Source: an uncultured Caulobacteraceae bacterium | GTDB lineage: Bacteria > Pseudomonadota > Alphaproteobacteria > Caulobacterales > Caulobacteraceae | NCBI GenBank assembly: GCA_937138625.1 | Contig: CAKZPF010000006.1 | Coordinates: 62,001-126,000, forward strand | Reading direction: 5' to 3' | Length of the DNA stretch: 64,000 bases | Shown here: piece after piece, positions 12,394 to 41,300 of the stretch | How the letters are laid out: every line of letters starts with the position of its first letter | Position numbering within the stretch: position 1 is the stretch's first letter | Notes under the pieces: model-generated | Seen by the model: only the letters and a program-made list of their open reading frames with translations | What the model was told of the DNA's origin: nothing | Databases searched by the model: none | Translations under genes and position numbers: made by a program

Positions 12394-12468
12394 GCGGGCG
12401 TAGCTCAGGGGTAGAGCGTTACCTTGCCAAGGTAAATGTCGTGAGTTCGAATCTCATCGCCCGCTCCA
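12394..12468 (+). tRNA. tRNA-Gly (anticodon GCC)
   Basis: Acceptor strand GCGGGCG (12394-12400) pairs with CGCCCGC (12458-12464); discriminator T12465 and an encoded CCA (12466-12468) follow. The D arm AGCTCAGGGGTAGAGC, the anticodon arm TTACC-TTGCCAA-GGTAA with anticodon GCC, and the T loop GTTCGAATC are all present. The gene is intact and its 3' end is the attachment core for the integrated element. Confidence 0.97.
12455..12468 (+). repeat. attL core (tRNA 3' end)
   Basis: CATCGCCCGCTCCA, identical over 14 bp to 57408-57421, where it stands without the rest of a tRNA. Direct repeats of a tRNA 3' end around an integrase-bearing segment are the standard signature of site-specific integration. 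Confidence 0.9.
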
Positions 12469-12500
12469 GATTTCTTTTTCTCCAAACTGATAAGCCATTG

Positions 12501-12524
12501 AAAAGCAAGGATTTACTTGCTTTT
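12501..12524 (+). terminator. hairpin downstream of tRNA-Gly
   Basis: AAAAGCAAG-GATTTA-CTTGCTTTT, a perfect 9-bp stem with a 6-nt loop whose 3' arm ends in TTTT. It lies 32 nt past the tRNA CCA, inside the mobile element, so the element brings its own stop signal between the tRNA and int. Confidence 0.5.
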
Positions 12525-12554
12525 CTTGCGCATTCGAATCTTTTTCGCTTCATT

Positions 12555-12590
12555 TTTGGGCTAGAATATTGCCAGAATTTGGGCCATAAA
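12555..12590 (+). promoter_or_regulatory. left pair of integrase arm-type repeats
   Basis: TTTGGGCTAGAAT (12555-12567) and TTTGGGCCATAAA (12578-12590), 23 bp apart. The second lies in a 20-bp stretch from GCCAGAATTT onward that recurs near the right end (57329-57346) almost unchanged. The second copy ends 5 bp before the int start codon, so integrase bound here would also block its own expression. Confidence 0.55.
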
Positions 12591-12595
12591 ATGCT

Positions 12596-14005
12596 ATGGC
12601 TCGACCTCTTGATGGTGATCGATACCTCCGCCAGCGGGCGGGATGGTACTATTACTACCGGCACATTCCGCGCCGGGTTCAACCCTTCTATGAGGGTCAG
12701 ACAATTCGCCTGGCGCTCGGCACGCAATCGCGCGACATCGCCCGCATGCGACGGGATGAATTGGTCGAAGCCGATGACACCTTCTGGGCTCAGCTCAAGC
12801 TTTCCCTTGACCTGGAAAAAGCCGGACAGACCATGGACACCGTTCATGCCCGCAAGCGTTACGAAATCGCCAAGGCGCGCGCCATGGCGGCGGGTTATAC
12901 CTATCGCCCGGTAGACCAGCTCGCTGATCCGACTCAGATTGAGGACATCGTTCGACGGATCCTGACCGTTGAACAGCAGGCCGCATCGGATGGACGGCTC
13001 AACGAAGCTGTCGTCGACGCCGTCCTGGGCGGCGTCAGCGAACCGAAGACAACGGTCTCGGAAGCGATGGACATTTACAAGGCCAAGATCGCGCTTGGCG
13101 AGTTGCGCAGTAAGTCGCCAGCTCAAAAGAAGCTCTGGCACGCCACAAAGGATCGGTCTCTTCGGTATTTCGTCTAAGTGATTGGCGACGTGCCCATTGC
13201 GGACATCACGCGCGAACATGCCCAGACCTATTTCGACTGGTGGAACCAGCAGCTTTCGCCTGACGATCCGGACGAGAAGCCCAAGAAGCCGAAGACCGCG
13301 GCGCGTCACTTCAGCGACATTCGTAAGCTCTACGCGGAATACTTCCGATATATGGGGGAAGAGGACCGCCAGAACCCGTTCCGCAATATGAATTTCAAGG
13401 GGAAGTCGCGGACAGTGATCCCGGCCTTTCCGGACACCTGGGTGCGCGAGAAAATCCTGGTTCGCGGCGCCCTTGATGGCCTGACCGAAGAACTCCATCT
13501 CGTCACCTTCATGTTGATCGAGACGGGATGTCGGCCAAGCGAGATCATCAATCTGCGGCCAGAGGACATCGTTCTGAAGGCAAAAGTCCCCCACATCGCC
13601 ATTCGTGCGCGGGACGACCGGGAGACCAAGACCGAGACCTCGATCCGGGAAATTCCGCTTGTCGGCGTCGCACTTGAGGCGGCCAGGCGCGCGCCGGACG
13701 GGTTTCCACGATATGTCGACAAGTCCAATTCCTTCTCCGCGGCGATGAGCGCAGCCTTCAGGCGACGCGAACTTTTTCCGACGGCGGATCACGTCATTTA
13801 CTCGTTCCGGCATTCCTTCGAGAAACGGATGCAGGAAGCGAACATCGACTACGCTCTGCGTTGCCTCCTGATGGGGCACAAACACGACCGCCCTAAATAT
13901 GGTGATGGCGGGTCGCTGAGCTATCGTCGTGATGAGTTGATGAAGATTGCGCACCCTGTGCCGAGGGACTTGTTCGCGGATTTCGACGCGGTGCACGTCG
14001 CTTGA
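12596..14005 (+). pseudogene. int: tyrosine recombinase/integrase with in-frame TAA
   Basis: Two collinear pieces in the same frame: 12596-13177 (193 codons, N-terminal arm-binding and core-binding parts) ends in TAA right after LRYFV, and 13178-14005 (275 codons) continues with VIGDVPIADITREHAQTYFDWW. The second piece holds the catalytic residues: Arg in TGCRPSEI, Arg-His in YSFRHSF, His in GHKHDRPKYG and a Tyr near the C-terminus. Removing the stop gives a normal phage-type integrase of about 469 residues. GTG directly follows the TAA, so reinitiation or readthrough is conceivable. A single nonsense mutation (for example CAA to TAA) or a sequencing error would explain it. Confidence 0.85.
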
Positions 14006-14174
14006 CTGGAGCAGATAGTTTCTGTGCGCGATCGATTTTTTCGGTCAAGGTCCGTCGGCGCTCATAGTCCGCATCAAGAATTTCAAACAGCGGCAAAAAC
14101 CTGTCGCCGAACTCAGTAACGATCCGCGCCGCGAGGGCGCGCGCACGTTCAAGGTCTTCCGTCGAAACCGCCAT
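13893..14174 (-). CDS. small hypothetical protein antisense to the integrase 3' end
   Basis: The frame starting at ATG 14174 (MAVSTEDLERARALAARIV) gives 93 residues: a helical, Arg/Glu-rich N-terminal half containing FGDRFLPLFEILDADYERRR and a basic, Ser/His-rich tail. The helical half looks like real protein, but the last 113 bp overlap the integrase gene on the other strand. I do not recognise a function. The longer frame up to 14351 is less likely, because that region holds an inverted repeat. Confidence 0.45.
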   Translation of the reverse strand: MAVSTEDLERARALAARIVTEFGDRFLPLFEILDADYERRRTLTEKIDRAQKLSAPVKRRAPRRNPRTSPSAQGAQSSSTHHDDSSATRHHHI

Positions 14175-14330
14175 GATGGACATGATCAGATCAAATCTTC
14201 TGAACCACCACCTCGGAAGCTCGCAAATGCGCCGGGTGATCGACATGAGTTTGCAAGGGTTCAGTAAGCGGCTTGGTGCGGTGAAGAAGCATGCCGCAAT
14301 CGGTAGGAGGCCTTTTGAAGGCGGGCACTT

Positions 14331-14351
14331 TTGTACACCTTGAGTGTACAA
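14331..14351. promoter_or_regulatory. perfect inverted repeat upstream of hipBA
   Basis: TTGTACAC-CTTGA-GTGTACAA, perfect 8-bp arms with a 5-nt spacer. It sits 37 bp before the first hipB operator and differs in sequence from those operators, so it may bind a different regulator. The gap 14175-14506 between the small antisense gene and hipB is otherwise regulatory sequence without a gene. Confidence 0.4.
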
Positions 14352-14388
14352 GATCGAGTTTCATCAAACACAGAGCCAAATCATGTAA

Positions 14389-14500
14389 TTCCCGAACGGG
14401 AATAATCGGCTCGAAAGAGACTCCATTCGCGTCACTCTTCCCGTTCGGGAATATTCCGCTTGACGCCATCGCTCCAATCACATATCTTCCCGATCAGGAA
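14389..14500 (+). promoter_or_regulatory. three phased palindromic operators of hipBA
   Basis: TTCCCGAACGGGAA (14389-14402), TTCCCGTTCGGGAA (14438-14451) and TTCCCGATCAGGAA (14487-14500) lie at exactly 49-bp intervals. The first two are perfect palindromes; the third has one mismatch and contains the AGGA ribosome site of hipB. HipB proteins are known to bind several spaced palindromes upstream of their own operon, so these are very probably the autoregulatory sites. Confidence 0.75.
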
Positions 14501-14506
14501 GATGAG

Positions 14507-14725
14507 ATGATGACGCCAACAGACATCGGAACCACCATACGCGCGGCGCGAAAGGCTCAAGGCCTGCGGCAGGACGAACTTGCCGCCGCGGCGAATGTCG
14601 GCGTGCGCTTTTTGATCGAGCTCGAAGGCGGCAAGGAAACGGCCCAGCTTGGCAAGACGCTGGCCGTCCTGGCTGCGCTCGGAATAAACGTGGAGCTATC
14701 CATCCCTGATGGGGACGCCACATGA
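14507..14725 (+). CDS. hipB: HipB-type XRE antitoxin and repressor
   Basis: A 72-residue helix-turn-helix protein: TTIRAARKAQGLRQDELAAAANVG followed by LEGGKETAQLGKTLAVLAALGI, the XRE fold typical of HipB. It would neutralise HipA and repress the operon through the three palindromes upstream. ATG 14507 is preceded by AGGA at 6 nt. The stop overlaps the hipA start (ATGA), as is usual for this pair. Confidence 0.9.
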   Translation: MMTPTDIGTTIRAARKAQGLRQDELAAAANVGVRFLIELEGGKETAQLGKTLAVLAALGINVELSIPDGDAT

Positions 14726-15984
14726 CACGGCGACTGATCGTCTGGTGGAATGGCGCGCGCGTTGGCCAGCTTGCGCTGAACGAATATGGCGAGCCCGAAT
14801 TCGCCTATGCCGAAGACTGGCTCGCCACGTCGAACGCGAGACCGGTGTCAGCCTCCTTACCCCTGCAGCCTGAACCTTTCGACCGGAGGGTGACCCTTCC
14901 CTTCTTCGAGGGCCTCCTGCCGGAGGCGTCGCAGCGAACCGCCATCGCGCAGGCACTGGGTATCTCGGAACGAAATGAATTCCGCCTCCTGGAAGAGATT
15001 GGCGGCGAAGTCGCCGGGGCGATAGAGGTGTGGCCGGAGGGCGTCGCGCCCGCACCAAACGGCACACCCGACAGATCCCGCAGTCTGAGCGATGACGAAC
15101 TGGTTGCGCTGATTGATCGATTGCCGACGCGTCCGATGCTGGCGGGCGGCGAAGACGGTTTGCGGCTTTCGCTGGCCGGGGCTCAATCGAAACTGCCTGT
15201 CGTCTACAGGGACGGAGAAATAGCCCTGCCCGCACCGGGGCAGCCGACAACGCATATCCTGAAACCCGAGATCACCCGGTTCGAGGGCACCGCCGAGAAC
15301 GAGGCCTTCTGCATGCGGCTCGCCCGAGCCATCGGTCTCGACGTCGCTGACGTCCAGTATCGCGATGTCGGGGACAAGCGGTTTCTGCTGATCGAACGCT
15401 ATGACCGACTGACAGGAGAGGACGGCAAGACCATTCGTCTTCATCAGGAGGATTTCTGCCAGGCGCTCGGGTTCACGTCTGCGCGCAAATACGCCAGCGA
15501 TGGCGGGCCTGTCTTCCGGGACTGTTTCGCACTCGTGCGGCGAGTGACGACCCGGCCTGCCACCGAAGCCCTGAAGCTTCTGGATGCAGCCCTGTTCAAC
15601 GCAATCATCGGCAATGCCGATGCTCATGCGAAGAATTTCAGTTTGCTGTACCTGCCAGACCGGACGCAGCTCGCACCGCTCTATGATCTTCTCTCCACCA
15701 TCGCCTATCCTGACCTCAGCCAGCGCTTCGCCATGAAGATCGGCGGACGCCGGACACTGGAGGAGATTTACCCCGCCGATCTCGACAAGTTCGCAAAGGA
15801 CATCGAGATCCGCGCGCCATTTGTCCGCAGGCGGATGGGAGAGATTGCAGAAACTATCATCGAGCAATCGGGACGTGTTGTGTCTACGCTTGCGTTGCCG
15901 CCCGCCCGGGATACCCTGATGAACAGCATTTGCGACACCGTTACAGGAAGAGCGAAATCCTTGCTGGAGAGGCTCGGAGCCTGA
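14722..15984 (+). CDS. hipA: HipA-type serine/threonine kinase toxin
   Basis: A 420-residue HipA-family kinase. HipA of E. coli phosphorylates glutamyl-tRNA synthetase and induces persistence. Seen here are the N-terminal subdomain with RPVSASLPL, the ATP-binding LSLAGAQSKLPV (about 152-163), the HILKPE lysine region, FLLIERYDR, the catalytic loop GNADAHAKNFSLLY (about 296-309) and the metal-binding LAPLYDLLS (about 317-325). All key motifs are present, so it should be active. It forms an operon with hipB, and lies between the integrase and the defence operon. Confidence 0.92.
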   Translation: MTRRLIVWWNGARVGQLALNEYGEPEFAYAEDWLATSNARPVSASLPLQPEPFDRRVTLPFFEGLLPEASQRTAIAQALGISERNEFRLLEEIGGEVAGAIEVWPEGVAPAPNGTPDRSRSLSDDELVALIDRLPTRPMLAGGEDGLRLSLAGAQSKLPVVYRDGEIALPAPGQPTTHILKPEITRFEGTAENEAFCMRLARAIGLDVADVQYRDVGDKRFLLIERYDRLTGEDGKTIRLHQEDFCQALGFTSARKYASDGGPVFRDCFALVRRVTTRPATEALKLLDAALFNAIIGNADAHAKNFSLLYLPDRTQLAPLYDLLSTIAYPDLSQRFAMKIGGRRTLEEIYPADLDKFAKDIEIRAPFVRRRMGEIAETIIEQSGRVVSTLALPPARDTLMNSICDTVTGRAKSLLERLGA

Positions 15985-16046
15985 AGCCGGAGATTGTTTC
16001 ATTCGAGTCGACAGCGTCTGCCACACGCTCACCCGGACAAGAGCGT

Positions 16047-16862
16047 TTAGAAATCACTCTGCCGGGTATCGATCGGCAAATGCTCTGTACGGACGCGTTC
16101 AAGTCTCGCACCCGCTTCATTCAACCCCCAGCGCCGGTCCAGATAGAACTCGAGTGCCTTGCGCACTTCGACTTTCAGGAGATCGTCGTTGAAGCCATAC
16201 TCCCGTCGAACAACAGCGGCTTGCGCCGCACTCAGCTGCGCGCTTGGCCTCAGCCAGATGATGCTCAGCGTGTGCCATTCGGAATCCACCGGCAACAGCG
16301 CCTCGAGCTCTCCTGCTTGGAACTCATTCTTCGGTTCGATCCTGGCGGGATGAAAGTTCCGGTACTCGCCGCGTTTGTAGCTATAGGCCCGGAAGTGAAT
16401 GCTCTCGCCATCGAAGATAAACCGGGTTGGCGCGACCCATTGCGGCGCCGTTTCTCCTGAACTCATCGATGTATAGGCAATCCTGATTTTTTTACGGTTC
16501 GAGATGGCGTCGTGAAGGGCGGTCGCGATTTGCGGGTCCAGCCACCGTTTCGCGCGAGGCAGCGCAGCGGGCAACTCATCATTCGAGGTCGTGTCGAGAA
16601 CGCCGAATACGTCCAGCATTGAAGATGGCCCAATCGGCTGATGATCTCTCGCTGCGACATAGGCTTTCAGGTGCGCGTCATATTCCGGCGCGTTCTGCGT
16701 GATCAGAGAGAGATAGGCCCGAAAATCATTGGCGGCCTGCGCGGTTGAGATTCCAAACCGCTCAGTGAGATCACGCCGCCGCGCCACGCCGCGCCAGGTG
16801 AAGCACCTGTCGAGAAACAAAAGGCGCTGTCGCTGGGCATGTTTCAGGTCGTCGAGCGTCAT
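16047..16862 (-). CDS. WYL-domain transcriptional regulator (CapW/BrxR-like)
   Basis: About 271 residues with an N-terminal winged helix-turn-helix (RRDLTERFGISTAQAANDFRAYL), a central WYL domain (about 120-200: IRIAYTSMSSGE, FRAYSYKRGEYRNFHPARI) and a C-terminal extension. This order matches the CapW/BrxR repressors that control CBASS, BREX and other phage-defence operons. It diverges from sbcD, with an inverted repeat between the two genes. I prefer ATG 16862 because AGAGGA lies upstream at good spacing; ATG 16898 or TTG 16901 would add 12-13 residues. Confidence 0.85.
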   Translation of the reverse strand: MTLDDLKHAQRQRLLFLDRCFTWRGVARRRDLTERFGISTAQAANDFRAYLSLITQNAPEYDAHLKAYVAARDHQPIGPSSMLDVFGVLDTTSNDELPAALPRAKRWLDPQIATALHDAISNRKKIRIAYTSMSSGETAPQWVAPTRFIFDGESIHFRAYSYKRGEYRNFHPARIEPKNEFQAGELEALLPVDSEWHTLSIIWLRPSAQLSAAQAAVVRREYGFNDDLLKVEVRKALEFYLDRRWGLNEAGARLERVRTEHLPIDTRQSDF

Positions 16863-16905
16863 CCAATTTCCTCTCTTGACTCCTGTTAACCTATGCATCA
16901 AAAAA

Positions 16906-16927
16906 GTATACGTATAAAAAATATACG
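16906..16927. promoter_or_regulatory. candidate operator between WYL regulator and sbcD
   Basis: CGTATA-AAAAA-TATACG (16911-16927), perfect 6-bp arms, overlapping the palindrome TATACGTATA (16907-16916). It lies 10 bp before the sbcD start codon and upstream of the divergent regulator, the place where a CapW/BrxR-type dimer would bind to repress the defence operon. Confidence 0.55.
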
Positions 16928-16936
16928 GAACAAGTC

Positions 16937-18079
16937 ATGAAGCTGCTGCACACCTCCGACCTGCATCTCGGTCGTCAGTTCAACGGGATCTCCCTGGAGG
17001 AGGATCACGCAGCGGTGCTCGACCAGATCGTCGAGGCGGTTAAGGCGAATAGGGTCGATGCGCTGATTATCGCCGGCGATGTCTTCGACCGGGCGTCGCC
17101 GCCACAAAGTGCGGTGCGGCAGTTCAACGGATTTCTCCAGCGAATCAAAACCGAGACGGACGCCGCCGTCGCCATGATCGCGGGCAATCACGATTCAGGG
17201 GACCGTATCGATTTGTCAGCCATCGCGGCGGATCGCTCGCGCTGGCTCATCCGCGGCGCGATCAGTGTAAAGGAAGTGCCGCTTCTGCTATCAGACACGC
17301 ATGGTACGGTTGCAATCTCGGCGCTGCCGTTCGCTTACGAATATGCGGCGCGGGAGTGCTTCGAGAGCGAGACCATTGATACGCCCGAAGATGTGCTGGT
17401 GGCGCAAGTCGCAGCCGCACGCGCCGAGGTTCCCGAAGGTGCGCGGTGGATCATCGTCGCGCACGCCTTCGTCACGGGAGGTTCGGTCAGCGAAAGCGAG
17501 CGTTCTCTGACGCGGGTTGGCGGAATAGAGACTGTCAGAGCCTCCGCCTTTGACGGGGCGCACTATGTCGCCCTCGGGCATCTTCATCGCCCCCAATCGA
17601 TCAGCACTGACCATATTCGTTATTCCGGCTCGCCTCTCGCCTTCGGCTTCGACGAAGCCGACTCGGAAAAATCGATGAGCCTGATCGAGATGGACGCAGC
17701 CGGTCAGGTTTCGGTCGAGGTCGTGGCGTTCAAGCCGATCAGGCGTGCCCGGGTTCTGCGCGGCAAACATGCAGAACTCCTACTCTCCGATCCGTCGAGT
17801 GATTTCATCAAGGCGGAGCTGACAGATGATGTACCCGTCATCGACGGCATGAAGCGCCTGAGGGACGTGTTTCCGAACGCCTGCGAGCTGGTTTATGTTC
17901 GCAATGAGCGCCCGCTTGAGACGAAGTCCGCGGACGGCCCGGCTGTCACCGCTGCTGAGCCAGCGGAGGTGGTCAGAAACTTCCTAGGCGAAGTCGGTCT
18001 CGAAAACATCACGGATGCCGAACAGGACGTTGTTGAAGCTTCCCTCACGCGCTTGCGGCAGAGGGAGGATGCGGAATGA
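16937..18079 (+). CDS. sbcD: SbcD-type DNA repair exonuclease subunit
   Basis: A 380-residue calcineurin-fold metallophosphoesterase. Motifs in order: HTSDLHLGR (5-13), AGDVFDRASPP, AGNHDSGDR, HAFVTGG and GHLHRPQ, all the metal ligands of Mre11/SbcD. With SbcC it forms a nuclease that opens hairpins and DNA ends. GGAA lies upstream of the ATG. The 3' end overlaps sbcC by 4 nt. It is the first gene of an operon that continues into qatABCD and is probably controlled by the divergent WYL regulator. It could be a cargo defence version rather than the housekeeping SbcD. Confidence 0.9.
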   Translation: MKLLHTSDLHLGRQFNGISLEEDHAAVLDQIVEAVKANRVDALIIAGDVFDRASPPQSAVRQFNGFLQRIKTETDAAVAMIAGNHDSGDRIDLSAIAADRSRWLIRGAISVKEVPLLLSDTHGTVAISALPFAYEYAARECFESETIDTPEDVLVAQVAAARAEVPEGARWIIVAHAFVTGGSVSESERSLTRVGGIETVRASAFDGAHYVALGHLHRPQSISTDHIRYSGSPLAFGFDEADSEKSMSLIEMDAAGQVSVEVVAFKPIRRARVLRGKHAELLLSDPSSDFIKAELTDDVPVIDGMKRLRDVFPNACELVYVRNERPLETKSADGPAVTAAEPAEVVRNFLGEVGLENITDAEQDVVEASLTRLRQREDAE

Positions 18080-21000
18080 GACCGGTCCGACTCACACTCC
18101 AGGCCTTCGGTCCCTATGCGAACAGAGAGGTCATCGATTTCCGCAACGCCGTTGAAGCGGGCCTGTTTGGCATCTACGGCCAGACCGGCTCGGGCAAATC
18201 GACAATCTTCAGTGGAATGACCTTCGCGCTGTTTGGCGAGGCGTCGAAGTCGGAACAGGATCGCAACTCCCTTCGTTCGGACCATGCAGCCGCTGACGTT
18301 GCGACCGAAGTCGAGTTCGTCTTCGACGTGGGCGAGCGGCGCTTCGTGGTGGTTCGCCAGCCAGATCAGATGCGACCGAAGCAGCGCGGCGAAGGTGAAA
18401 CCAAGAGCGCGCACGAAGCCTATCTGTTCGATGCCACGGGGCTATCCCTCGATGAGATCACCGGCGAGAAGCGCGGCAAAATCGTTGCGGAAAAGAAGGT
18501 CCGCGATGTCGATGCTGCCGTTTCGGAGCTTCTTGGTTACGGCGCTGAACAGTTCCGGCAAATCGTGCTGCTGCCGCAAGGCCGGTTCGAGAAGTTCCTG
18601 TCCGCCAAAACCAATGAACGCGTGACGATCCTGCGGGACCTGTTCGACGTCTCGTTCTATCAGGCCCTGATGGTTGACCTGAAGGAACAGGCCGCTGAGG
18701 CGGAACGGCAGGTGCGAGACGAACGGGCAGTCTGCGCCGGACGGCTCAAAGCCGAAGGGTTTGAGAGCACCGACACCCTGCTGGAAGGCATAGACTCCGC
18801 TCAGGCCGCGGTTCGGGAGCGAACAACCGTTGAGGCTGACGCAAAGAAAGAGGCGCAAACAGCCGAGACCGCGCTTCGGTCTGCCGAGGTGGTGGAGGCT
18901 AAGTTCGCGGCATCGGAACAGGCGCAAGAGAAGCTCACCGTCCTCATGGGTCGCAAGGCAGAATTTGCCGCCATCTCAGCTCGGGTAAAACAAGCGGAGC
19001 GCGCCCGGCTGATTGTGGATGTCGAAGCCCAGCTCAAGGCGGCGCGGCAAGATGTTCAGGAAGCCAACAATAAACTCGCTGTAGCCAAAGAAGCGGCGAA
19101 CGAAGCCCAACAAAACGTCAAAAACGCGACCGAAGCTCTGAACAAGGAGCAAGCAAGAGCGCCAGAAATCGAGGCCGCGCGCAAACGCAAAGATGATCTT
19201 GAGCGGTTTGCCGGGGTTCTTGAAGCGGCTTCAGCCAGCGCCGAAGCCGTGGAAAGGACGCTCGAGGCGCAGCGAATTGCCGAGGCGGCCTTCGAGAAGA
19301 GCAAAGATCGCCTCACCCAATTGCGCTCAACTCGCACACAGCGCGACACTGCACTCAAATCGGCCCGAAGCGCTGAGAGCGCACGCGGCGAGCTTATGAA
19401 AGCGCAAACGCATTTTCTGACCCAGAAGAAAGCTGCCGAGGACTACGGGAAAGCAGAAGTGGCGGCCCGGTCGGCGAAAGCGGCGTTTGAAAAAGAAAGT
19501 GCAGCCTCAGCCAAGGCGCTAGAACATGAACCCGAGGCGCGCGCCGCCTATGCAGCAGCGGAGCAAGCCCTGGCCGCCGCGCAAGCGCTGCATCTCGCAA
19601 CCAAGCTGGAAAACGATGCGCCCTGTCCTGTGTGCGGATCGACCGACCATCCGAACCCCGCTACGGGCGATATCGAGAATGCGGGGCGTGATCAGGCCTT
19701 CCGCGAAGCCCGCGACCGGTTTGAAACGGCTGCACGCGCTGCCCGCGAGGCCAGTGAAAAGCTAGCCGGGCTGAAAGCCACGCTCGAGGCCCGTGAAGAA
19801 ACCCTCTCATCACTGGAACAGCCGACAGACACGCTCGCGGCGATCCTAGAGAACGTCAGACAGACTGAGGCTGACCTCAGAGCACTGGGCCCTGTCGTCA
19901 ATCTCGAGGAAGCCGAGGCGGCTATCGAAGCGCTCAACAAGCAGATTGAAGCGCAAGAAACCGAGACCGAATGCCTCCGCAGTGAGGCGGATAAATGCCG
20001 CAACGCTGCGACCGAAGCCAGTGCCGCCCGCGATGGAAAACTTGAGGCTGTCCCCGAAGCGCTCCGTACAGAGAGAGCAATCAAGTCCGCAAAGGACGAG
20101 ACGTCGCGTGTACTGACCACGCTGGTCGAAGCGAAAGACAAGGCCGAAGCTGTGCTCAAAGCGGCCCGCGAGGCCGTCCTCTCCGCCGATGCCACGGGCA
20201 AGGGCGCTGAAGAGTCGGTTGCAGCCTGCAAAGTCCGCCTCGAAAAAGCTGAAGCGACGTTCGGCACGCGTCTGTCTGAGCAAGAGCTCACGGAGGAAAT
20301 GTACAAGTCTCTCAAACCCGCCATCGCGACCATCGAGTCAGATAGTAAATCGGTCAAAGTGTTTGAGACGGAATTGAACGAGGCGCAGGGGGTCGCAAAC
20401 GCTGCGGCCTCAGCGATTGGCGATCTGACGCCCCCGGAACTTCCTGTGTTGAAGGAAGCTCACGAAACCGCAGTAGCCGCCCTGACCAAAGCCACAGAGG
20501 AGCGGATCGCTGCCAGCAATCGTGTCGGTCAGCTGGACAAGCTGAGGCAAAGTCTCGAAGACACGATGCGAAAACTGGATGAGGCCGAAGCTGTGTCCGG
20601 CCCCCTTCGCAAGATCGCGGCGCTCGCGAATGGTGATAATCCGCTAAACCTCAAGCTGGAAACCTATGCGATCGGGGCCATGTTCGACCGCGTGCTCGAA
20701 GCCGCCAATCTCCGGCTCGGCCCGATGACATCTTCTCGTTACCAGCTCGAACGTGACGCCGAGGGTGGTCGTGGCAGCCGTGGTCTGGGCATCCAGGTCT
20801 TTGATGTGCACACGGGCAAGTCGAGAGGAACCGACACCCTGTCCGGCGGCGAGACGTTCATCGCGGCGCTCGCCCTCGCGCTGGGGCTCGCTGATGTTGT
20901 CGAATCTGCAAGCGGCAAAGTCCGCCTCGATACGATCTTCATCGATGAGGGATTCGGGAGCCTCGACACCGAGAACGGGTCAGGCACCCTCGATCAGGTC

Positions 21001-21147
21001 CTGAACGTCCTAAACAGTCTGGTAAAAGACTCGCGTGCCGTCGGCCTGATTTCGCACGTTCCTCTGGTCCAGGAAGCCATTCCGAATGGATTCTATGTTC
21101 GTAAGAGTCTCGACGGTAGTACGGTTGAAGAGCGAGGATTACTATAA
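18076..21147 (+). CDS. sbcC: SbcC-type SMC-like ATPase subunit
   Basis: A 1023-residue Rad50/SbcC homologue: N-terminal ATPase lobe with FGIYGQTGSGKST (Walker A, about 35-42), two long Ala/Glu-rich coiled-coil arms (about 200-500 and 530-850), the zinc-hook CPVCG near residue 516 at the apex, and the C-terminal lobe with signature LSGGE (about 921) and Walker B TIFIDEGFGSLD (about 954). All ATPase motifs are intact. It pairs with SbcD and is followed after 91 bp by qatA, a gap with a palindrome and no hairpin with a T-tract, so readthrough into qatA is likely. Confidence 0.92.
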   Translation: MRPVRLTLQAFGPYANREVIDFRNAVEAGLFGIYGQTGSGKSTIFSGMTFALFGEASKSEQDRNSLRSDHAAADVATEVEFVFDVGERRFVVVRQPDQMRPKQRGEGETKSAHEAYLFDATGLSLDEITGEKRGKIVAEKKVRDVDAAVSELLGYGAEQFRQIVLLPQGRFEKFLSAKTNERVTILRDLFDVSFYQALMVDLKEQAAEAERQVRDERAVCAGRLKAEGFESTDTLLEGIDSAQAAVRERTTVEADAKKEAQTAETALRSAEVVEAKFAASEQAQEKLTVLMGRKAEFAAISARVKQAERARLIVDVEAQLKAARQDVQEANNKLAVAKEAANEAQQNVKNATEALNKEQARAPEIEAARKRKDDLERFAGVLEAASASAEAVERTLEAQRIAEAAFEKSKDRLTQLRSTRTQRDTALKSARSAESARGELMKAQTHFLTQKKAAEDYGKAEVAARSAKAAFEKESAASAKALEHEPEARAAYAAAEQALAAAQALHLATKLENDAPCPVCGSTDHPNPATGDIENAGRDQAFREARDRFETAARAAREASEKLAGLKATLEAREETLSSLEQPTDTLAAILENVRQTEADLRALGPVVNLEEAEAAIEALNKQIEAQETETECLRSEADKCRNAATEASAARDGKLEAVPEALRTERAIKSAKDETSRVLTTLVEAKDKAEAVLKAAREAVLSADATGKGAEESVAACKVRLEKAEATFGTRLSEQELTEEMYKSLKPAIATIESDSKSVKVFETELNEAQGVANAAASAIGDLTPPELPVLKEAHETAVAALTKATEERIAASNRVGQLDKLRQSLEDTMRKLDEAEAVSGPLRKIAALANGDNPLNLKLETYAIGAMFDRVLEAANLRLGPMTSSRYQLERDAEGGRGSRGLGIQVFDVHTGKSRGTDTLSGGETFIAALALALGLADVVESASGKVRLDTIFIDEGFGSLDTENGSGTLDQVLNVLNSLVKDSRAVGLISHVPLVQEAIPNGFYVRKSLDGSTVEERGLL

Positions 21148-21192
21148 TGAGCTTTCTATCTGCTCCCGAAGCAGCTCATCAAATAAAGTTTA

Positions 21193-21202
21193 GCGAATTC
21201 GC
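21193..21202. promoter_or_regulatory. palindrome in the sbcC-qatA gap
   Basis: GCGAATTCGC, a perfect 10-bp palindrome extended by TTTA/CAAA-like flanks, in an AT-rich 91-bp gap. It might be an internal operator or promoter element for qatA. Nothing else marks the gap except a small CTGCT/AGCAG stem just after the sbcC stop. Confidence 0.3.
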
Positions 21203-21238
21203 AAATTTTTTGGCGCTTGATCAACTGGTTCCGGATAA

Positions 21239-23167
21239 ATGATTGTTGCAGATAATGAAACAGCAGTTGACCTGCTCTATTATGAGGCGATCGCCAAGAC
21301 TGTAGTCCGTCTTGTGGGGGAGCGGTCGGATGACCCGCTAAGTGTGGGTGTTCATGGCGATTGGGGCGCGGGGAAGTCCAGCGTCCTCATGATGGTCGAG
21401 GAGGCCTTTTCTGATAACGACCGCGTGCTCTGTGTGCGGTTCAACGGCTGGCTGTTCCAAGGCTTCGAGGACGCAAAGGCGGTCCTGATCGAAACGATAG
21501 TCGAGGAACTACGCCGCAAGCGGCCCACGTCTCAAAAGGTTGCTGAGCAGGCAAAAAAGGTCTTGACGCGGGTCGACTGGATGAAGCTTGCGCGCAAGGC
21601 GGGAGCTTACGGCTTGACGTTAGCGACCGGCATTCCCCATCCAGAGACAATTAAGGATCTTGGGGACGCAGCGCGAAGTGTCCTCGGGAAGGGGGCCGAG
21701 GAGTTGACTCCGGAGAATCTGGCCGCGCTTGTCAATGGTTCCGACGAGTACTTGCGCGAAGTGGCTGAAGACAGTGCGCCTGAACAGATGCACGCTTTCC
21801 GGGACGAGTTCGCCAAACTTCTACAGGACGCCGAAATCGATCGCCTCGTGGTCCTTGTCGACGACCTCGACCGGTGTCTCCCGAAGATTGCGATCGAGAC
21901 GTTGGAAGCGATCAGGTTATTTCTGTTCGTACCAAGAGCGGCCTTCGTCATCGGGGCGGACGAGGGAATGATCGAATATGCCGTGCGGCAACACTTCCCG
22001 GACCTTCCGGTGGCAACGGGTCCGGCCTCCTATGCACGCAATTACCTCGAGAAGCTGATTCAGGTCCCTTTCCGTCTGCCCTCGCTCGGATATGCCGAGA
22101 CGCGGATCTATGTAACGCTGCTCTTGGTGTTAATCGACTTTGGCGAGGATTCCGATGAGTTCCAGAAATTGTCCGCGCTGGCGCGCGAGGTGTTGCGTCG
22201 CCCATGGAAAGGCCCCGGGCTCGACCGAAAGGCCGTCGAGCAGGCTTTAGGCGGAGTGCCGGTCGAGGTAGAGCGAGCGATGGAGTTGGCCGGGCGGATC
22301 GCTCCGATCCTTGCGGACGGCGCGCGAGGTAACCCGAGACAGATAAAGCGCTTCATCAACACGATGATGCTTCGTCTGGCTATCGCCGAGGAGCGCGGTT
22401 TCCGCGATGAACTGAACATTTCGGTACTCGCTAAGGTCATGCTCGCGGAGCGCTTCGCCCCTGAGCTCTACGATGCGATGGCGCGGGGCTCTGCCAACAC
22501 TGGGGCGTCGGAGGAGCTCGCGGCGCTCGAAGCCGTGGTCGCGGTCACATCCCCCGGCCTGAAGGCGAAATCGGTAAATGGAACGGAGAGCGATCCATCT
22601 GCGGAGGCATCGCTACCGGATTGGCCAAATATAGAATGGGCCAAGCAGTGGGCCGCCATCGATCCGCCACTCGCTGAGAACGATCTTCGACCATATGTTT
22701 TCGTAACCCGTGACCGGCGAACTGTGTTCGGTGCGGTCACGTCTCTCGGCCAACTGGACGAACTCGTTGCAAAGCTTCAGGGCTCGCCGCTACAGGTGAA
22801 GCAGGCTGCGACGGAGGTTGCACGGCTTCAGTCGATTGAGGCGGAACAGGTCTTCGATGCGCTGCGCGCCAAAGTGCGAGACGCTGAGGACTTGGCCCAG
22901 GAGCCCGTGGGCGTAAAGGGGCTGGCTGAGATGGCGCGCCAGCATCCCTTCCTGCAGAGGCCGTTGCTTTCTTTCGTGCAGGATCTTCCGGTCTCTAAAC
23001 TCGGCCCCTGGGCGGTCAGCGGCTGGGCATCAGTTTTCAGCGAAACCGACGTAGCTTCGGACTTTGCGGCGACGCTCAAGGGATGGGCCGATCAGGACGA
23101 TAACAAGCCGCTAAAGGCGGCAGCGAGCGCGTCGATGAAACTCTCCAGCAAGCGGAAGCGTAGCTGA
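21239..23167 (+). CDS. qatA: QatA, KAP-family P-loop ATPase of the Qat anti-phage system
   Basis: A 642-residue KAP NTPase. Walker A is GDWGAGKSS (about residues 41-49), followed by VRFNGWLFQGF, a typical KAP feature, and Walker B LVVLVDDLDRC (about 204-214). The core also has FVIGADEG and NPRQIKRFINT, the sensor-like arginine region. KAP ATPase followed by qatB, a QueC-like gene and a TatD-like gene is the defining order of QatABCD, which protects E. coli against several phages. The stop overlaps the qatB start by one base. Confidence 0.9.
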   Translation: MIVADNETAVDLLYYEAIAKTVVRLVGERSDDPLSVGVHGDWGAGKSSVLMMVEEAFSDNDRVLCVRFNGWLFQGFEDAKAVLIETIVEELRRKRPTSQKVAEQAKKVLTRVDWMKLARKAGAYGLTLATGIPHPETIKDLGDAARSVLGKGAEELTPENLAALVNGSDEYLREVAEDSAPEQMHAFRDEFAKLLQDAEIDRLVVLVDDLDRCLPKIAIETLEAIRLFLFVPRAAFVIGADEGMIEYAVRQHFPDLPVATGPASYARNYLEKLIQVPFRLPSLGYAETRIYVTLLLVLIDFGEDSDEFQKLSALAREVLRRPWKGPGLDRKAVEQALGGVPVEVERAMELAGRIAPILADGARGNPRQIKRFINTMMLRLAIAEERGFRDELNISVLAKVMLAERFAPELYDAMARGSANTGASEELAALEAVVAVTSPGLKAKSVNGTESDPSAEASLPDWPNIEWAKQWAAIDPPLAENDLRPYVFVTRDRRTVFGAVTSLGQLDELVAKLQGSPLQVKQAATEVARLQSIEAEQVFDALRAKVRDAEDLAQEPVGVKGLAEMARQHPFLQRPLLSFVQDLPVSKLGPWAVSGWASVFSETDVASDFAATLKGWADQDDNKPLKAAASASMKLSSKRKRS

Positions 23168-24048
23168 TGGGAACGTCCGGAACATTCGGAGGTTCAAAAA
23201 ACGGGCTGGTTCCGAGCTGGGTCGATGAGCCCGCGTCGCAGCCTGCGGCCGCGCCGGACAATGCCGATTCAGATTCCACAGACGGCGACGGGGCCGACGG
23301 ACCGGAGCAAAGCGGAGAGGAGTCTGCCGGTGCGACACCGGCTCAGGCATACCCGCCCATACCTGCCGTTCCGGCAAGTTCAGGCCTCGGTGGCGCGCGC
23401 GGGAACATAACGAGGGGCGCGCGAACATCCGATGAGCGTGCCTTGCGGCGAGGCGCGGGCAGATATGTAAGTGCGAGCGGTGGCGGACGTGCTGCGGCGA
23501 GCCGGATGCCAAACTCCCGCGCCGTGGCAGGCGGCGTGGCAGGTCTCGCAAGGAACTTCGTCAATCAGGGTCCGACAGAGGCGCTGAGGCGGTTCAATCT
23601 TGAGAGCATGGCGGGGGCTCCCGCCGAGGACGTGTTCATCGCTTTGACAGATATGCTGTGTCCTGCAGGCGGCACCATCGACGAAGCGATCGCAAGGGAC
23701 GCAATGCTTGAAACGGTCGCCGACCTGGCCGCTGCGGGTGTCGGGAACTTCGACGAGCTCTCCGCAGACGATTTGCGCGAGTTCTTCATCGGTGTTGTGA
23801 GCCGCTCGATCGAAGGCAAAATTCTCAATGAGGTAGGGACCAACGCCATCGCGGCACCTTCAGACATTGGCGGGGTCGAACGCGCGCAAGCAATCTTGTA
23901 CGATTTTATTGAGAATTGTGTGCGCGATGAGTTTCACGCTTACGGAACGGATCTGAGCAACATTGACGCCAACTCAATCGATAGATTTGTCGACGACCTC
24001 TACGCTGCCGCACACGATCTAATCGAAGCCCGTGGAGACGACGGATGA
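23167..24048 (+). CDS. qatB: QatB, Qat system protein of unknown activity
   Basis: A 293-residue protein starting MGTSGTFGGSKNGLVPSWVD, the glycine-rich QatB-type opening, followed by a low-complexity acidic and Ala/Pro-rich stretch (about 18-60) and a basic Gly/Arg-rich segment (about 75-115). The remainder (about 120-293) is mostly helical. The family has no known enzymatic motif. It overlaps qatA by 1 nt and qatC by 4 nt, so it is translated as part of the operon and is probably stoichiometric with its partners. Confidence 0.85.
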   Translation: MGTSGTFGGSKNGLVPSWVDEPASQPAAAPDNADSDSTDGDGADGPEQSGEESAGATPAQAYPPIPAVPASSGLGGARGNITRGARTSDERALRRGAGRYVSASGGGRAAASRMPNSRAVAGGVAGLARNFVNQGPTEALRRFNLESMAGAPAEDVFIALTDMLCPAGGTIDEAIARDAMLETVADLAAAGVGNFDELSADDLREFFIGVVSRSIEGKILNEVGTNAIAAPSDIGGVERAQAILYDFIENCVRDEFHAYGTDLSNIDANSIDRFVDDLYAAAHDLIEARGDDG

Positions 24049-25412
24049 GGAGGTTCAGTCTGATCGGTCGGCTCGGTCCCGACGACAAGAGAAAGGTCAA
24101 CTTGGTCCAGTCCGACTCCGAAGTATTCGAGATCGATTTCCTGGACGGTGACCTGCGCATGGGCTTCGGTATCGGTCACGCGCTAGACCAACTCGCCTCC
24201 CTCGGGCTGCTACCTTCGGAGAGGGCCATTGACCTTGTCGTCCTCGCGGCGCTCGTCAACGCCGGGGACACAAGAGTTTCCCGAAAGTTGAACGCACAAG
24301 ATGGCTGGACCCGCGAGATCGATCTCTACATCCCGGTGTCCGCCTCGGCAGCATGGACGGCTAGCACGAGATCGATCGAGTCGATGTTGCGCTTTCTCTC
24401 GGGGGATCGGTGGCGTGTCTTCTTCCGCGACCGGACGAAGAGAACCAGAACCCTTGCTGTCGCTCCGAAACGTTTGGCGATAGACGGGCTGACAAAGGTC
24501 AGCCTCCTGTCCGGTGGTTTGGACAGTCTCATTGGCGCGGTCGATCTCCTGAGCGGCGGTGAACGCTCGCTGTTCGTCAGTCATTACTGGGACAGCGAAA
24601 CTGCCAAAGCCCAAGCCTACATCATCGACCGGTTGGAAACCCGGTTCGGCAAAGAGGCCTTCAAAAGTCTCCGTGTGCGGTTGGGTTTCGATAAGCACCA
24701 TCTCACCACCGGGGAGACGGAGAACACCCAGCGGGGACGCTCCTTCCTCTTCTACTCGCTGGCGACGCTGGCAGCGTCGGCGATCGATGGACGGACCACG
24801 GTCGACATACCAGAGAACGGCCTCATTGCGCTCAACGTGCCCCTTGATCCCTTGCGATTTGGGGCGCTGAGCACGCGCACGGCGCATCCGCACTTCATCG
24901 CGAGCATGCAGAGGTTATTCGATGCTCTCGCGCTCGATGTCGAACTGAACAACCCTTATAGTCACATGACGAAGGGCGAGATGGTTGCGAACTGCGCCGA
25001 CAGACCTTTCCTTGAGAAGATCGTCGCGAACTCCATGTCTTGTTCATCGCCTGCAAAGGCGCGTTACAAGAAGCTCTCCCCTCGGCACTGCGGATACTGT
25101 GTCCCGTGCCTGATCCGCAGAGCATCGCTCGAAGCCGGTTTCGATGGAGACGATGAGACGCTCTACACAATCGAGGATCTGAAGGGACATGTCCTGGCCT
25201 CCGACCAGCCCGAAGGGGAGCATGTCCGATCCTTCCAGCTGATGGCCAAGAGAATCAGGGCAAAACCGGGCCTCTCGAAGATCCTCGTTCACAAGCCTGG
25301 TCCGCTCCATGACGAGCCGGATGAGATACCGGACTACGCCGAAGTGTTTCGACGCGGCGTCCTTGAAGTCGCCGAGCTCCTGAAAGGTGTTCGGGCACGG
25401 CCGGGCGGATGA
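24045..25412 (+). CDS. qatC: QatC, QueC-like protein of the Qat system
   Basis: A 455-residue protein with a QueC-like ATP-pyrophosphatase core: the PP-loop LLSGGLDSLIGAVDLL (about 154-170) and a zinc site from Cys near residue 332 and the cluster HCGYCVPC (about 348-355). QueC makes the 7-cyano-7-deazaguanine precursor of queuosine. In Qat the QueC-like member is thought to modify a protein or nucleic acid partner, a role not settled from sequence. An N-terminal domain of about 150 residues precedes the core. Overlaps qatB and qatD by 4 nt each. Confidence 0.9.
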   Translation: MRRFSLIGRLGPDDKRKVNLVQSDSEVFEIDFLDGDLRMGFGIGHALDQLASLGLLPSERAIDLVVLAALVNAGDTRVSRKLNAQDGWTREIDLYIPVSASAAWTASTRSIESMLRFLSGDRWRVFFRDRTKRTRTLAVAPKRLAIDGLTKVSLLSGGLDSLIGAVDLLSGGERSLFVSHYWDSETAKAQAYIIDRLETRFGKEAFKSLRVRLGFDKHHLTTGETENTQRGRSFLFYSLATLAASAIDGRTTVDIPENGLIALNVPLDPLRFGALSTRTAHPHFIASMQRLFDALALDVELNNPYSHMTKGEMVANCADRPFLEKIVANSMSCSSPAKARYKKLSPRHCGYCVPCLIRRASLEAGFDGDDETLYTIEDLKGHVLASDQPEGEHVRSFQLMAKRIRAKPGLSKILVHKPGPLHDEPDEIPDYAEVFRRGVLEVAELLKGVRARPGG

Positions 25413-26167
25413 CCATGCGGCCTGTCTACGTGGATTTCCATACGCATCTAGACCTCTATCCCGACCTCGCTGAAGCGATTGCGGCCTGTGATCGCAAGCG
25501 CGTAGCGACCTTGGCAGTCACAACGACCCCGAAGGCGTTTGATAGAAATGTTGAACTGGCCGCCGGTAGCGAGTTCGTGAAAGTCGGGTTGGGATTACAT
25601 CCACAACTCGTCGATGAGCGTCATTCGGAGATCAACCTTTTTGAGAAATTGCTTCCAAGAACGCGTTACGTCGGTGAAGTCGGTCTGGATGCTAGTCCTC
25701 GTTTTTACAAGTCGTTCGATCTTCAAAAGAAGATTTTTCAGGACATTCTTGAAATATGCGCCGCTGAAGGTGGTAAGATACTCAGCCTGCACTCAGTGAG
25801 ATCAGCCAAACCCGTTCTCGACTATTTAGAGAAATACCTTCCGGAGGAGAGAGGCACGGCCATTCTCCACTGGTTTACCGGCAGTGTTTCTCTCGCGCGA
25901 AGAGCGGTTGAATTGGGCTGTTATTTTTCAGTCAACGAACAAATGCTATCATCGCCAACAGGAGAAAAGCTGATTAAGGAAATTCCCTTTGAGCGAATAC
26001 TGACCGAAACAGACGGGCCGTTTGTCGAACGTAATGGCGTATCCATCCCGCCGGGCGACGTATCCGGTGCGGTGAGGCTTCTCTCAGTGTTGACCGGTAA
26101 AGATGAACTCGAAGTACGCCGTCAAATTCTGGTGAACTTAAAAGCTTTGCTCGAATCGCGAATGTAG
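25409..26167 (+). CDS. qatD: QatD, TatD-like metal-dependent hydrolase of the Qat system
   Basis: A 252-residue TatD-family protein: YVDFHTHLDLYPD (metal-binding HxH, residues 11-13), VGEVGLDAS (bridging Glu), SLHSVRS, LHWFTG and ETDGPFVE (the final Asp), all ligands of TatD DNases. In QatABCD this member is the likely nuclease or hydrolase effector. It closes the defence operon. The 28-bp gap to the convergent DUF736 gene holds no obvious terminator. Confidence 0.9.
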   Translation: MTMRPVYVDFHTHLDLYPDLAEAIAACDRKRVATLAVTTTPKAFDRNVELAAGSEFVKVGLGLHPQLVDERHSEINLFEKLLPRTRYVGEVGLDASPRFYKSFDLQKKIFQDILEICAAEGGKILSLHSVRSAKPVLDYLEKYLPEERGTAILHWFTGSVSLARRAVELGCYFSVNEQMLSSPTGEKLIKEIPFERILTETDGPFVERNGVSIPPGDVSGAVRLLSVLTGKDELEVRRQILVNLKALLESRM

Positions 26168-26196: not shown

Positions 26197-26535
26197 CTAC
26201 TTCGCCCGATTCCACACCATGACGCCTGTGCCCTCTTTCTCATTCTCGAAGAAGGCGGCGCGCATGGGGGCACCGAAGCTCGGATCGTCGAGTTTGACGG
26301 CAAGATAGGGCGTTTCGCCGTCCCTGCTTTCCTGACGCCAGGCGGCGCCGAGTTCCGCGCCGCCGGCATAGAGCCGGAAGTCAGGCGCGCCGTCCGAGGT
26401 CTTGTCCGCATTGGGAACGAGCTGCGCTTTGACATTGATGGTCATGGTGCGGATGGTGCCGGTATAGCTGCCATCCTTCAGGGTGAAGGTTCCGATCTGT
26501 GCCAGGGGTCTAGTCTCCGTTGCTGGCGTTGGCAT
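26197..26535 (-). CDS. DUF736 domain protein
   Basis: A 112-residue protein with IGTFTLKDGSYTGTIRTMTINV and the ending GTGVMVWNRAK. DUF736 proteins are small beta-rich proteins found almost only on alphaproteobacterial plasmids and ICEs next to conjugation genes; their function is unknown. It is the last gene of the long minus-strand transfer operon and overlaps the DUF2274 gene by 26 bp. Confidence 0.85.
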   Translation of the reverse strand: MPTPATETRPLAQIGTFTLKDGSYTGTIRTMTINVKAQLVPNADKTSDGAPDFRLYAGGAELGAAWRQESRDGETPYLAVKLDDPSFGAPMRAAFFENEKEGTGVMVWNRAK

Positions 26536-41278: not shown

Positions 41279-41300
41279 CATGGCGTGGGCCGCCATCAGG

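What the first reader, a model, noticed from the sequence alone, without database searches (positions are those of the whole stretch)
16047..26167. SbcCD nuclease joined to a complete QatABCD system behind a CapW/BrxR-like regulator
sbcD, sbcC, qatA, qatB, qatC and qatD run in one direction. All junctions overlap by 1-4 nt except a 91-bp gap between sbcC and qatA. A WYL regulator of the type that represses CBASS and BREX operons diverges from sbcD, with an inverted repeat (16911-16927) between. QatABCD is an established anti-phage system and SbcCD is usually a housekeeping nuclease. Placing both in one ICE operon suggests a composite system in which SbcCD supplies end-sensing or hairpin cleavage to Qat.
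Basis: partly seen in the sequence, partly recalled or inferred. Interest (0 to 1): 0.85.

Follow-up and report, generated by a model that had tools for sequence, protein, structure and literature searches.

The report
Mobile SbcCD operon carrying Qat cargo
A bacterial mobile element carries a self-contained, regulator-controlled DNA-end nuclease operon behind which a complete, known phage-defence system (Qat) has been dropped in as exchangeable cargo, so the two look like parts that may share a switch rather than one machine.

Summary
The gene order is as described, with intact genes. Corrections: WYL most likely starts at 16862, and a 31-aa ORF bridges the 91-bp gap. WYL belongs to the CapW/BrxR family. 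This SbcD is the genome's only one; 5 of 100 related genomes, this one included, have any. WYL-SbcD-SbcC is itself a mobile operon: WYL faces SbcD in 33 of 34 collected loci, 24 of them plasmid loci, with a related promoter region. Qat is the exception: 2 of 34 loci. Of 52 other qat loci, one has SbcDC nearby, downstream and with its own divergent WYL. In another species the same element carries WYL-SbcDC (91% DNA identity, ending 3 bp past the sbcC stop) with a different candidate defence gene behind it; a second element copy in this genome carries CBASS in the same bay. Similarity to the seven closest qat loci with full qatA begins within 9 bp of its start. Qat is swapped-in cargo, probably transcribed with sbcDC. 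A joint Qat-SbcCD mechanism is not supported, nor excluded. The WYL-SbcDC operon looks undescribed in the searches made.

The parts
16047..16862 (-). CapW/BrxR-family WYL regulator (called ORF extends to 16901 from a TTG; start most likely the ATG at 16862)
   Evidence: Pfam WYL 38 bits; profile of 18 relatives hits CapW 7tb5 8.1e-47, 7tb6, 9c5g and BrxR 7qfz, 7t8k 3.1e-38 over most of the chain; start from alignment
16876..16916 (+). Promoter/operator region of sbcD: TTGACT 16876-16881 (-35-like), weak TCAAAA 16898-16903 in the -10 position, palindrome TATACGTATA 16907-16916
   Evidence: Consensus of 16 non-redundant loci; palindrome with up to 1 mismatch in 18 of 34 loci, once in the window; -35, -10 and operator are inference
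16911..16927 (+).
   Evidence: Sequence; exact in 4 of 34 module loci incl. the window
16937..18079 (+). sbcD, Mre11-like nuclease subunit, 380 aa
   Evidence: TIGR00619 166 bits, cut-off 77.65; Metallophos and SbcD_C; metal-site motifs
18076..21147 (+). sbcC, Rad50-like ATPase subunit, 1023 aa
   Evidence: sbcc_Staph 357 bits over residues 1-1003, below its cut-off of 920; AAA_23 and SbcC_Walker_B over cut-off; Walker A, CPVC hook, LSGGE, Walker B
21147..21242 (+). 31-aa ORF bridging sbcC and qatA; its ATG sits where many relatives start a fourth operon gene; probably a junction ORF
   Evidence: Translation; no family match; no hit in the 24 loci; position compared in 27 loci
21239..23167 (+). 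qatA, KAP-family NTPase, 642 aa
   Evidence: NF041923 860 bits; PADLOC QatA 1.1e-274
23167..24048 (+). qatB, 293 aa, N-terminus MGTS
   Evidence: NF041924 206 bits; sequence, motif as in PMC13279940
24045..25412 (+). qatC, QueC-like, 455 aa, SGGLDS and TRT motifs
   Evidence: NF041925 514 bits; motifs compared with the published active site
25409..26167 (+). qatD, TatD-like nuclease, 252 aa; possible recombination point about 94 codons in
   Evidence: NF041926 335 bits; N part 77-85%, C part 52-56% identical to L002-L008
26197..28101 (-). Right edge of the cargo bay: DUF736 gene, a small ORF and trbI
   Evidence: Pfam for DUF736 and TrbI; similarity to L089 and to the second element of this genome resumes at 26200-26201
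12394..15984 (+). Left part of the element: tRNA-Gly 12394-12468, integrase split into 12596-13177 and 13178-14005, HTH gene and hipA 14291-15984

Best explanation
WYL-sbcD-sbcC is a self-contained mobile operon: a CapW/BrxR-type regulator faces a promoter region that controls an SbcCD nuclease carried by alphaproteobacterial plasmids and conjugative elements. qatABCD is an independent, complete Qat system inserted directly behind sbcC in the defence-cargo bay of this element, in place of whatever followed sbcC before. Shown: modular boundaries, exchange of the cargo, no second SbcD in the genome, a related promoter region across the family. Inferred: WYL represses from the palindrome and lets go on DNA damage (ssDNA), as reported for CapW/BrxR; read-through from the sbcD promoter transcribes qat, perhaps helped by the bridging ORF; SbcCD then cuts DNA ends or hairpins while Qat acts on its own, so the two share a switch but no biochemical step.
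For: Cargo swap: L089 (another family of the class) matches window 16069-21150 at 90.9% and resumes at 26201 at 86.7%; between lies a PDC-S06 candidate-defence ATPase instead of qat. A second element in the same genome, about 86% identical from 26200, has cyclase, E1-E2, JAB and NucC genes in that bay. Similarity to the seven closest qat loci with full qatA (75-89% DNA identity) begins at 21230-21239. SbcD near 1 of 52 and 0 of 13 other qat loci. WYL beside SbcD in 33 of 34 module loci, Qat in 2 of 34. Promoter region. Regulator family. No promoter-like or terminator-like match in the gap, no operator copy there. One SbcD in the genome; 5 of 100 relatives incl. own have one.
Against: No expression data. 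The scan covers sigma-70-like promoters only and does not report the proposed sbcD promoter either; it does report a chance-level match just inside qatA. The palindrome is near-exact in only 18 of 34 loci, so it is not a universal operator. L025 is an independent Qat-SbcDC neighbourhood, and G349 holds a Qat-like locus (below the QatA cut-off) and the module on different contigs (expected overlap 0.09, P 0.09), which leaves room for mild affinity. The nearly gapless one-way coupling is tighter than chance placement needs.
Confidence: 0.68

Rival explanations
1. Composite system: SbcCD senses or trims phage DNA ends or hairpins and this activates or feeds Qat.
For: Same direction, 1-4 nt overlaps and a bridging ORF; a second, independent neighbourhood in L025; QatA binds DNA; Rad50-like proteins sense DNA ends and Lamassu couples one to variable effectors (passages of PMC10586767).
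Against: Order seen in this genome only among 66 qat rows looked at (window, 52, 13; one pair probably the same contig); in L025 SbcDC is downstream with its own divergent WYL; the same element elsewhere pairs SbcDC with an unrelated cargo; QatBC suffices against lambda-vir without added sbcDC.
Confidence: 0.1
2. Mere neighbours: qat has its own promoter in or near the gap and is not under WYL control.
For: Elsewhere qat stands behind unrelated sequence, so it can use other promoters; the gap has 42% G+C against 59% for the operon; a promoter-like match lies at 21255-21283, inside qatA.
Against: No promoter-like match at 21148-21238, and the two found in the region equal chance expectation (1.9); no terminator-like match in the gap; gap RNA folds no better than shuffles (z 0.65); bridging ORF.
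Confidence: 0.2
3. The WYL-SbcDC operon serves the mobile element rather than defence: it processes hairpins or ends made during transfer or replication, or removes competing elements.
For: It lies within a few kb of relaxase or coupling-protein genes in seven opened plasmid loci (coupling protein of L076 confirmed by Pfam); of 62 plasmid records with an SbcD relative 17 are typed conjugative and 15 mobilizable, 30 non-mobilizable.
Against: It also lies among Shango, SIR2, BREX and CBASS-type genes and has a regulator of a family tied to defence.
Confidence: 0.3
4. SbcCD as an interchangeable sensor with a slot for different effectors (zinc-ribbon protein, HNH protein, PDC-S06 ATPase, Qat), Lamassu-like in logic.
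For: Behind sbcC stand an intact zinc-ribbon ORF in 12 of 27 loci, a broken one in 3, an HNH ORF in 3, PDC-S06 and Qat in 1 each and a 246-aa ORF in 1; HNH is a nuclease fold.
Against: 6 of 27 loci have nothing coupled there; the zinc-ribbon gene also precedes a SMODS nucleotidyltransferase-SLATT operon, so it is not specific; Qat is a whole system.
Confidence: 0.15

Closest known systems
QatABCD anti-phage system
   Same: All four genes, order, scores over curated cut-offs, QatB MGTS, QatC SGGxDS and TxT motifs
   Different: Sits directly behind a WYL-sbcDC operon; qatD may be chimeric
SbcCD (bacterial Mre11-Rad50)
   Same: Both subunits, catalytic and zinc-hook motifs, overlapping genes
   Different: Accessory and mobile, faced by a CapW/BrxR regulator, often followed by a small fourth gene; SbcC below curated SbcC cut-offs, while its best PHROG match is a full-length family of unknown function (phrog_19980, 464 bits)
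CapW/BrxR WYL regulators of CBASS and BREX
   Same: Best solved relatives over nearly the full chain, facing the operon, palindrome at the promoter
   Different: Partner is SbcCD; the main texts of PMC9122601, PMC9122588 and PMC13373217 hold no word beginning with Sbc or Rad50 (find; supplements not searched)
Lamassu
   Same: Rad50-like ATPase combined with differing effectors (passages of PMC10586767)
   Different: Here SbcC pairs with an intact SbcD nuclease; SbcC scores 357 bits with an SbcC model against 62 with LmuB; no LmuA or LmuC among the eight proteins scanned

Membership tests
QatABCD | qatA, qatB, qatC, qatD all present and over curated cut-offs | tested here: met
QatABCD | QatB N-terminal MGTS; QatC SGGxDS and the two threonines described for QatC | tested here: met
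   (MGTS; SGGLDS at 156; TRT at 277) against text of PMC13279940
QatABCD | Phage protection | not testable with these tools
   needs plaque assays
SbcCD | SbcD over the subfamily cut-off with metal-site motifs | tested here: met
SbcCD | SbcC with Walker A, zinc hook, signature and Walker B | tested here: met
   but SbcC scores below all curated SbcC cut-offs
SbcCD as housekeeping gene | Present across related genomes | tested here: not met
   TIGR00619 in 5 of 100 relatives incl. this genome; the same search rings in 10 of 14 control genomes
CapW/BrxR regulators | Homologous over nearly the full chain to CapW and BrxR | tested here: met
   by sequence profile; no structure was predicted
CapW/BrxR regulators | Binds an inverted repeat at its target promoter | tested here: inconclusive
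   palindrome in the promoter region, near-exact in 18 of 34 loci; binding not testable
Lamassu | LmuB with LmuC and LmuA, not an SbcD nuclease | tested here: not met
   partner is SbcD; LmuB 62 bits against SbcC model 357
Integrative and conjugative element | Integrase plus conjugation genes | tested here: met
   the integrase frame is split by a stop
Integrative and conjugative element | Direct repeat of the attachment site | tested here: inconclusive
   22 bp of the tRNA-Gly 3' end occur once in the genome with up to 2 mismatches; shorter repeats not sought

The most novel reading that the evidence does not exclude
WYL-SbcD-SbcC is an undescribed mobile immune operon of Alphaproteobacteria: a CapW/BrxR repressor released by single-stranded DNA switches on an accessory Mre11-Rad50 nuclease that recognises DNA ends or hairpins of invaders, and the slot behind sbcC takes exchangeable partners (zinc-ribbon protein, HNH protein, PDC-S06 ATPase, a whole Qat system) that work as its effectors or back-ups.
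Probability: 0.2. Interest if true: 0.75.

Novelty: new variant of a known kind. Interest (0 to 1): 0.5.

Why it matters
It shows a Mre11-Rad50 nuclease living as accessory, apparently regulated cargo of conjugative elements, in an order of bacteria that mostly lacks one (5 of 100 genomes), and it catches defence genes being swapped in one bay of one element family: Qat, PDC-S06 and CBASS. If sbcDC alone gives protection, it is a new mobile immune module; if not, it still suggests how independent defence systems come under one repressor of a DNA-damage-responsive family.

Tried and rejected
Composite Qat-SbcCD system: rejected as the leading reading because of modular boundaries and rarity of the pairing. 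SbcCD as a copy of a chromosomal SbcCD: one SbcD in the genome; the only other SbcC_Walker_B match is under the cut-off (20.3 of 27 bits). SbcC as LmuB/Lamassu: rejected by scores and partner. The 31-aa ORF as a conserved protein: no family match, no hit in the 24 loci. Terminator or notable RNA fold in the gap: none. SbcD in viral contigs: 26 pattern matches, none a relative; phage records: 16, at most 36% identity. Near-identical plasmid DNA for window 15984-21250: none. Element end by tRNA repeat: not found. Solved relatives of the zinc-ribbon protein: best E 0.069. Literature: ten searches in an open-licence library without preprints; no listed title or abstract start concerns WYL-linked SbcCD or SbcCD with Qat. 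Searches listed 20 of 229 and 20 of 194 papers. I read sections 6, 8 and 9 and the abstract of PMC13279940, found passages of PMC9122601, PMC9122588, PMC13373217 and PMC10586767, and saw the rest as listings only; no supplement was searched.

Results against my reading: L025 pairs Qat with SbcDC independently; G349 has a Qat-like locus and the module on different contigs; L093 has an SbcD of 49-50% identity with no WYL hit and no matching promoter region; G065 has an SbcD of about 30-33% identity without a WYL hit in 18 kb; the palindrome has 2-4 mismatches in 16 of 34 loci, 4 being no better than chance by eye. Absence of Qat from module loci is seen only within 3.5-25 kb (three loci are under 8 kb). 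Rows dropped: near-duplicate promoter regions and L093 before the 16-row consensus (34 to 16); L080 from the zinc-ribbon alignment because its frame carries a stop (re-run without it). 24 of 62 plasmid records with SbcD were opened. L047, 91% identical in its partial QatA, was left out of the 'seven closest' because its locus holds only residues 380-642. The broken zinc-ribbon ORF of L083 was read from its sequence (19 codons); tblastn did not report it.
Full report
What is there. The window is G000:C6:62001-126000 of a 2.02-Mb genome, 98.8% complete. QatA-D pass the curated NCBIfam cut-offs and match PADLOC Qat models. SbcD passes TIGR00619; SbcC matches an SbcC model over residues 1-1003, below the curated cut-offs, and a full-length PHROG family of unknown function at 464 bits. 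Walker, zinc-hook and metal-site motifs, QatB's MGTS start and QatC's SGGLDS and TRT motifs are in place, so nothing looks decayed. Two details change: the WYL gene most likely starts at 16862 rather than 16901, and the gap between sbcC and qatA holds a 31-aa ORF (21147-21242) that overlaps both neighbours.

The regulator. A profile of 18 relatives searched against solved structures returns CapW (7tb5, 7tb6, 9c5g) and BrxR (7qfz, 7t8k) at E 3e-38 to 8e-47 over most of the chain, then PafBC far behind. A passage of PMC13373217 says that CapW/BrxR represses until it binds ssDNA; a passage of PMC9122601 that 164 of 347 BrxR homologues co-localise with known defence systems. The main texts of these and of PMC9122588 hold no word beginning with Sbc or Rad50.

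SbcCD is accessory here. SbcD occurs once in the genome. TIGR00619 finds SbcD in 5 of 100 related genomes including this one, while it rings in 10 of 14 control genomes, 8 over the cut-off. Of the five, this genome, G012, G027 and G097 carry the WYL module; G065 has a relative of about 30-33% identity without a WYL hit in 18 kb. In 385 genomes of the class 6, own included, have a relative at E 1e-60 or better. There is no second copy in this genome to compare with.

A mobile operon. tblastn finds SbcD relatives in 62 of 72,556 plasmid records; of the 60 listed, the 37 with 48-66% identity are from Alphaproteobacteria (by name, partly recalled), the next from Cupriavidus at 46% and less. I opened 24 of the 62 and collected 10 further loci including the window. 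In 33 of these 34 a WYL gene faces sbcD (not in L093); Qat is in 2 of 34, the window and L025, within the stretches held. The intergenic regions are related: the consensus of 16 non-redundant loci is cTTGACtc-N10-gTCcATnTA-N5-TAtAcgtata. In the window this is TTGACT at 16876-16881, a weak TCAAAA at 16898-16903 and TATACGTATA at 16907-16916, the only copy with up to 1 mismatch in the window. Reading these as -35, -10 and operator is inference. Neighbours, by the records' annotation or PADLOC, include Shango (L076 by PADLOC), SIR2-ATPase pairs, BREX genes, TIR, AbiE-type toxins and a CBASS-like set.

The slot behind sbcC. In 27 loci with the sbcC end in view, 12 have an intact zinc-ribbon ORF of about 100 aa starting on or within a few bases of the sbcC stop, 3 a broken one (L078, L079; L083 by reading its 19 remaining codons), 3 an HNH ORF (L025, L087, L130; Pfam HNH_4 for L130), 1 a 246-aa ORF, 6 nothing coupled, and 2 (window, L089) another cargo. 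The zinc-ribbon protein (CPxCG ... HPCLH) matches no Pfam family over its cut-off; in 10 of 11 opened plasmid loci with an intact copy PLSDB's incomplete gene table lists no gene there. In the window and L089 an ATG still overlaps the sbcC stop (TAATGA in both) and opens a short ORF that ends on the start of the next gene: 31 aa into qatA, 46 aa into the PDC-S06 gene. The simplest reading is that the start of a former fourth gene stayed while cargo replaced the rest; that history is inferred.

Qat is exchangeable cargo. L089, from another family of the class, matches window 16069-21150 at 90.9% (the three genes, to 3 bp past the sbcC stop) and resumes at 26201 at 86.7%; in between it has an 876-aa ATPase matching PADLOC PDC-S06 at 4e-175, and on the left AbiE genes and an integrase. 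The genome of the window has a second element, about 86% identical from window 26200 on, with cyclase, E1-E2, JAB and NucC genes (a type II CBASS; type recalled) between an integrase and the conjugation genes, next to a GMP synthase gene. From the other side, DNA similarity to the seven closest qat loci with full qatA (L002-L008, 75-89% over about 4.5 kb) begins at 21230-21239, at the qatA start, and their upstream sequences differ from the window's. It ends at 25690-25738, and QatD is 77-85% identical to theirs in its first 94 residues but 52-56% after that, no more than to several more distant loci, which suggests a recombination point inside qatD.

How often do they meet? Of 52 qat loci in genome contigs, 48 with at least 5 kb upstream and 43 also with 3 kb beyond qatD, one (L025, Tropicimonas) has SbcDC, downstream of qatD and facing its own WYL, so not one operon. 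Of 13 more qat loci, 0. By eye, none of the 40 listed QatA plasmids (of 48) is among the 60 listed SbcD plasmids (of 62). Among 384 other genomes of the class 5 have the SbcD and 7 a QatA match, one in common (expected 0.09, P 0.09), on different contigs and with a QatA below the curated cut-off. A mild affinity is possible; a conserved partnership is not seen.

Mechanism. Most likely: WYL represses the sbcD promoter; DNA damage or infection intermediates (ssDNA) release it; SbcCD and, by read-through, Qat are made together; each then acts alone. Shown: anatomy, boundaries, related promoter regions, no promoter-like or terminator-like match inside the gap (which finds a chance-level promoter-like match at 21255-21283 inside qatA). 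Inferred: repression, induction, read-through, the roles of the proteins. For Qat, the sections of PMC13279940 that I read report that qatBC alone protect against lambda-vir in E. coli, that qatA and qatD widen the range, and that QatB's N-terminal glycine and QatC's active site are needed. For SbcCD, the start of an abstract in a listing (PMC12624138) deals with phage N15 TelN and how hairpin telomeres evade the bacterial Mre11-Rad50 complex, which makes anti-phage action by an extra SbcCD plausible.

Verdict. What is of interest is the WYL-SbcDC operon itself, a mobile accessory Mre11-Rad50 with a variable slot behind it, on which no paper appeared in the listings of ten searches. I rate it a new variant of a known kind.

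Noticed in passing
G000:C3:505000-540000 (L146, L147): Second copy of the conjugative element in the same genome (about 86% identical backbone) with CBASS genes (cyclase, E1-E2, JAB, NucC) in the same cargo bay, an integrase and a GMP synthase gene beside it.
   Followed up: yes
window 12596-14005: Integrase gene split into two ORFs of the same frame by a stop codon (DUF6538 part and Phage_integrase part).
   Followed up: partly
L076 16214-16516, L127 13211-13522 and others: Small ~100-aa zinc-ribbon ORF coupled to sbcC in 12 of 27 loci; matches in 32 plasmid records.
   Followed up: partly
L137 6001-6291, L138 6001-6276, L140 6001-6294: The zinc-ribbon gene also precedes a nucleotidyltransferase-SLATT operon behind an XRE regulator (SMODS, AGS_C and SLATT_4 in L137) and, in L140, precedes an sbcD gene instead of following sbcC.
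   Followed up: partly
window 25409-26167: qatD looks chimeric: first 94 residues 77-85% identical to the closest loci, remainder 52-56%.
   Followed up: partly
window 18076-21147: SbcC scores higher with PHROG family 19980 (unknown function, 464 bits, full length) than with any SbcC model (357 bits), so phage or prophage relatives of this SbcC type exist.
   Followed up: no
L081 10867-11121; also L082, L087, L088, L123, L124, L126: A gene annotated as WGR-domain overlaps or abuts the end of the WYL gene in part of the module family (Pfam WGR for L081).
   Followed up: no
L083 16211-16313: Zinc-ribbon ORF cut off after 19 codons, just ahead of a transposase gene, suggesting that this slot takes insertions.
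   Followed up: partly
window 14291-15984: HTH gene and hipA gene, HipBA-like, between integrase and WYL.
   Followed up: no
window 39242-41443: Type I restriction HsdR-like (SWI2/SNF2) ORF of 733 aa; whether the rest of a restriction system is nearby was not examined.
   Followed up: no
L085 320-5018: Genes annotated as DNA repair exonuclease and YhaN family protein a few kb from the WYL-SbcDC operon on a Sphingopyxis plasmid.
   Followed up: no
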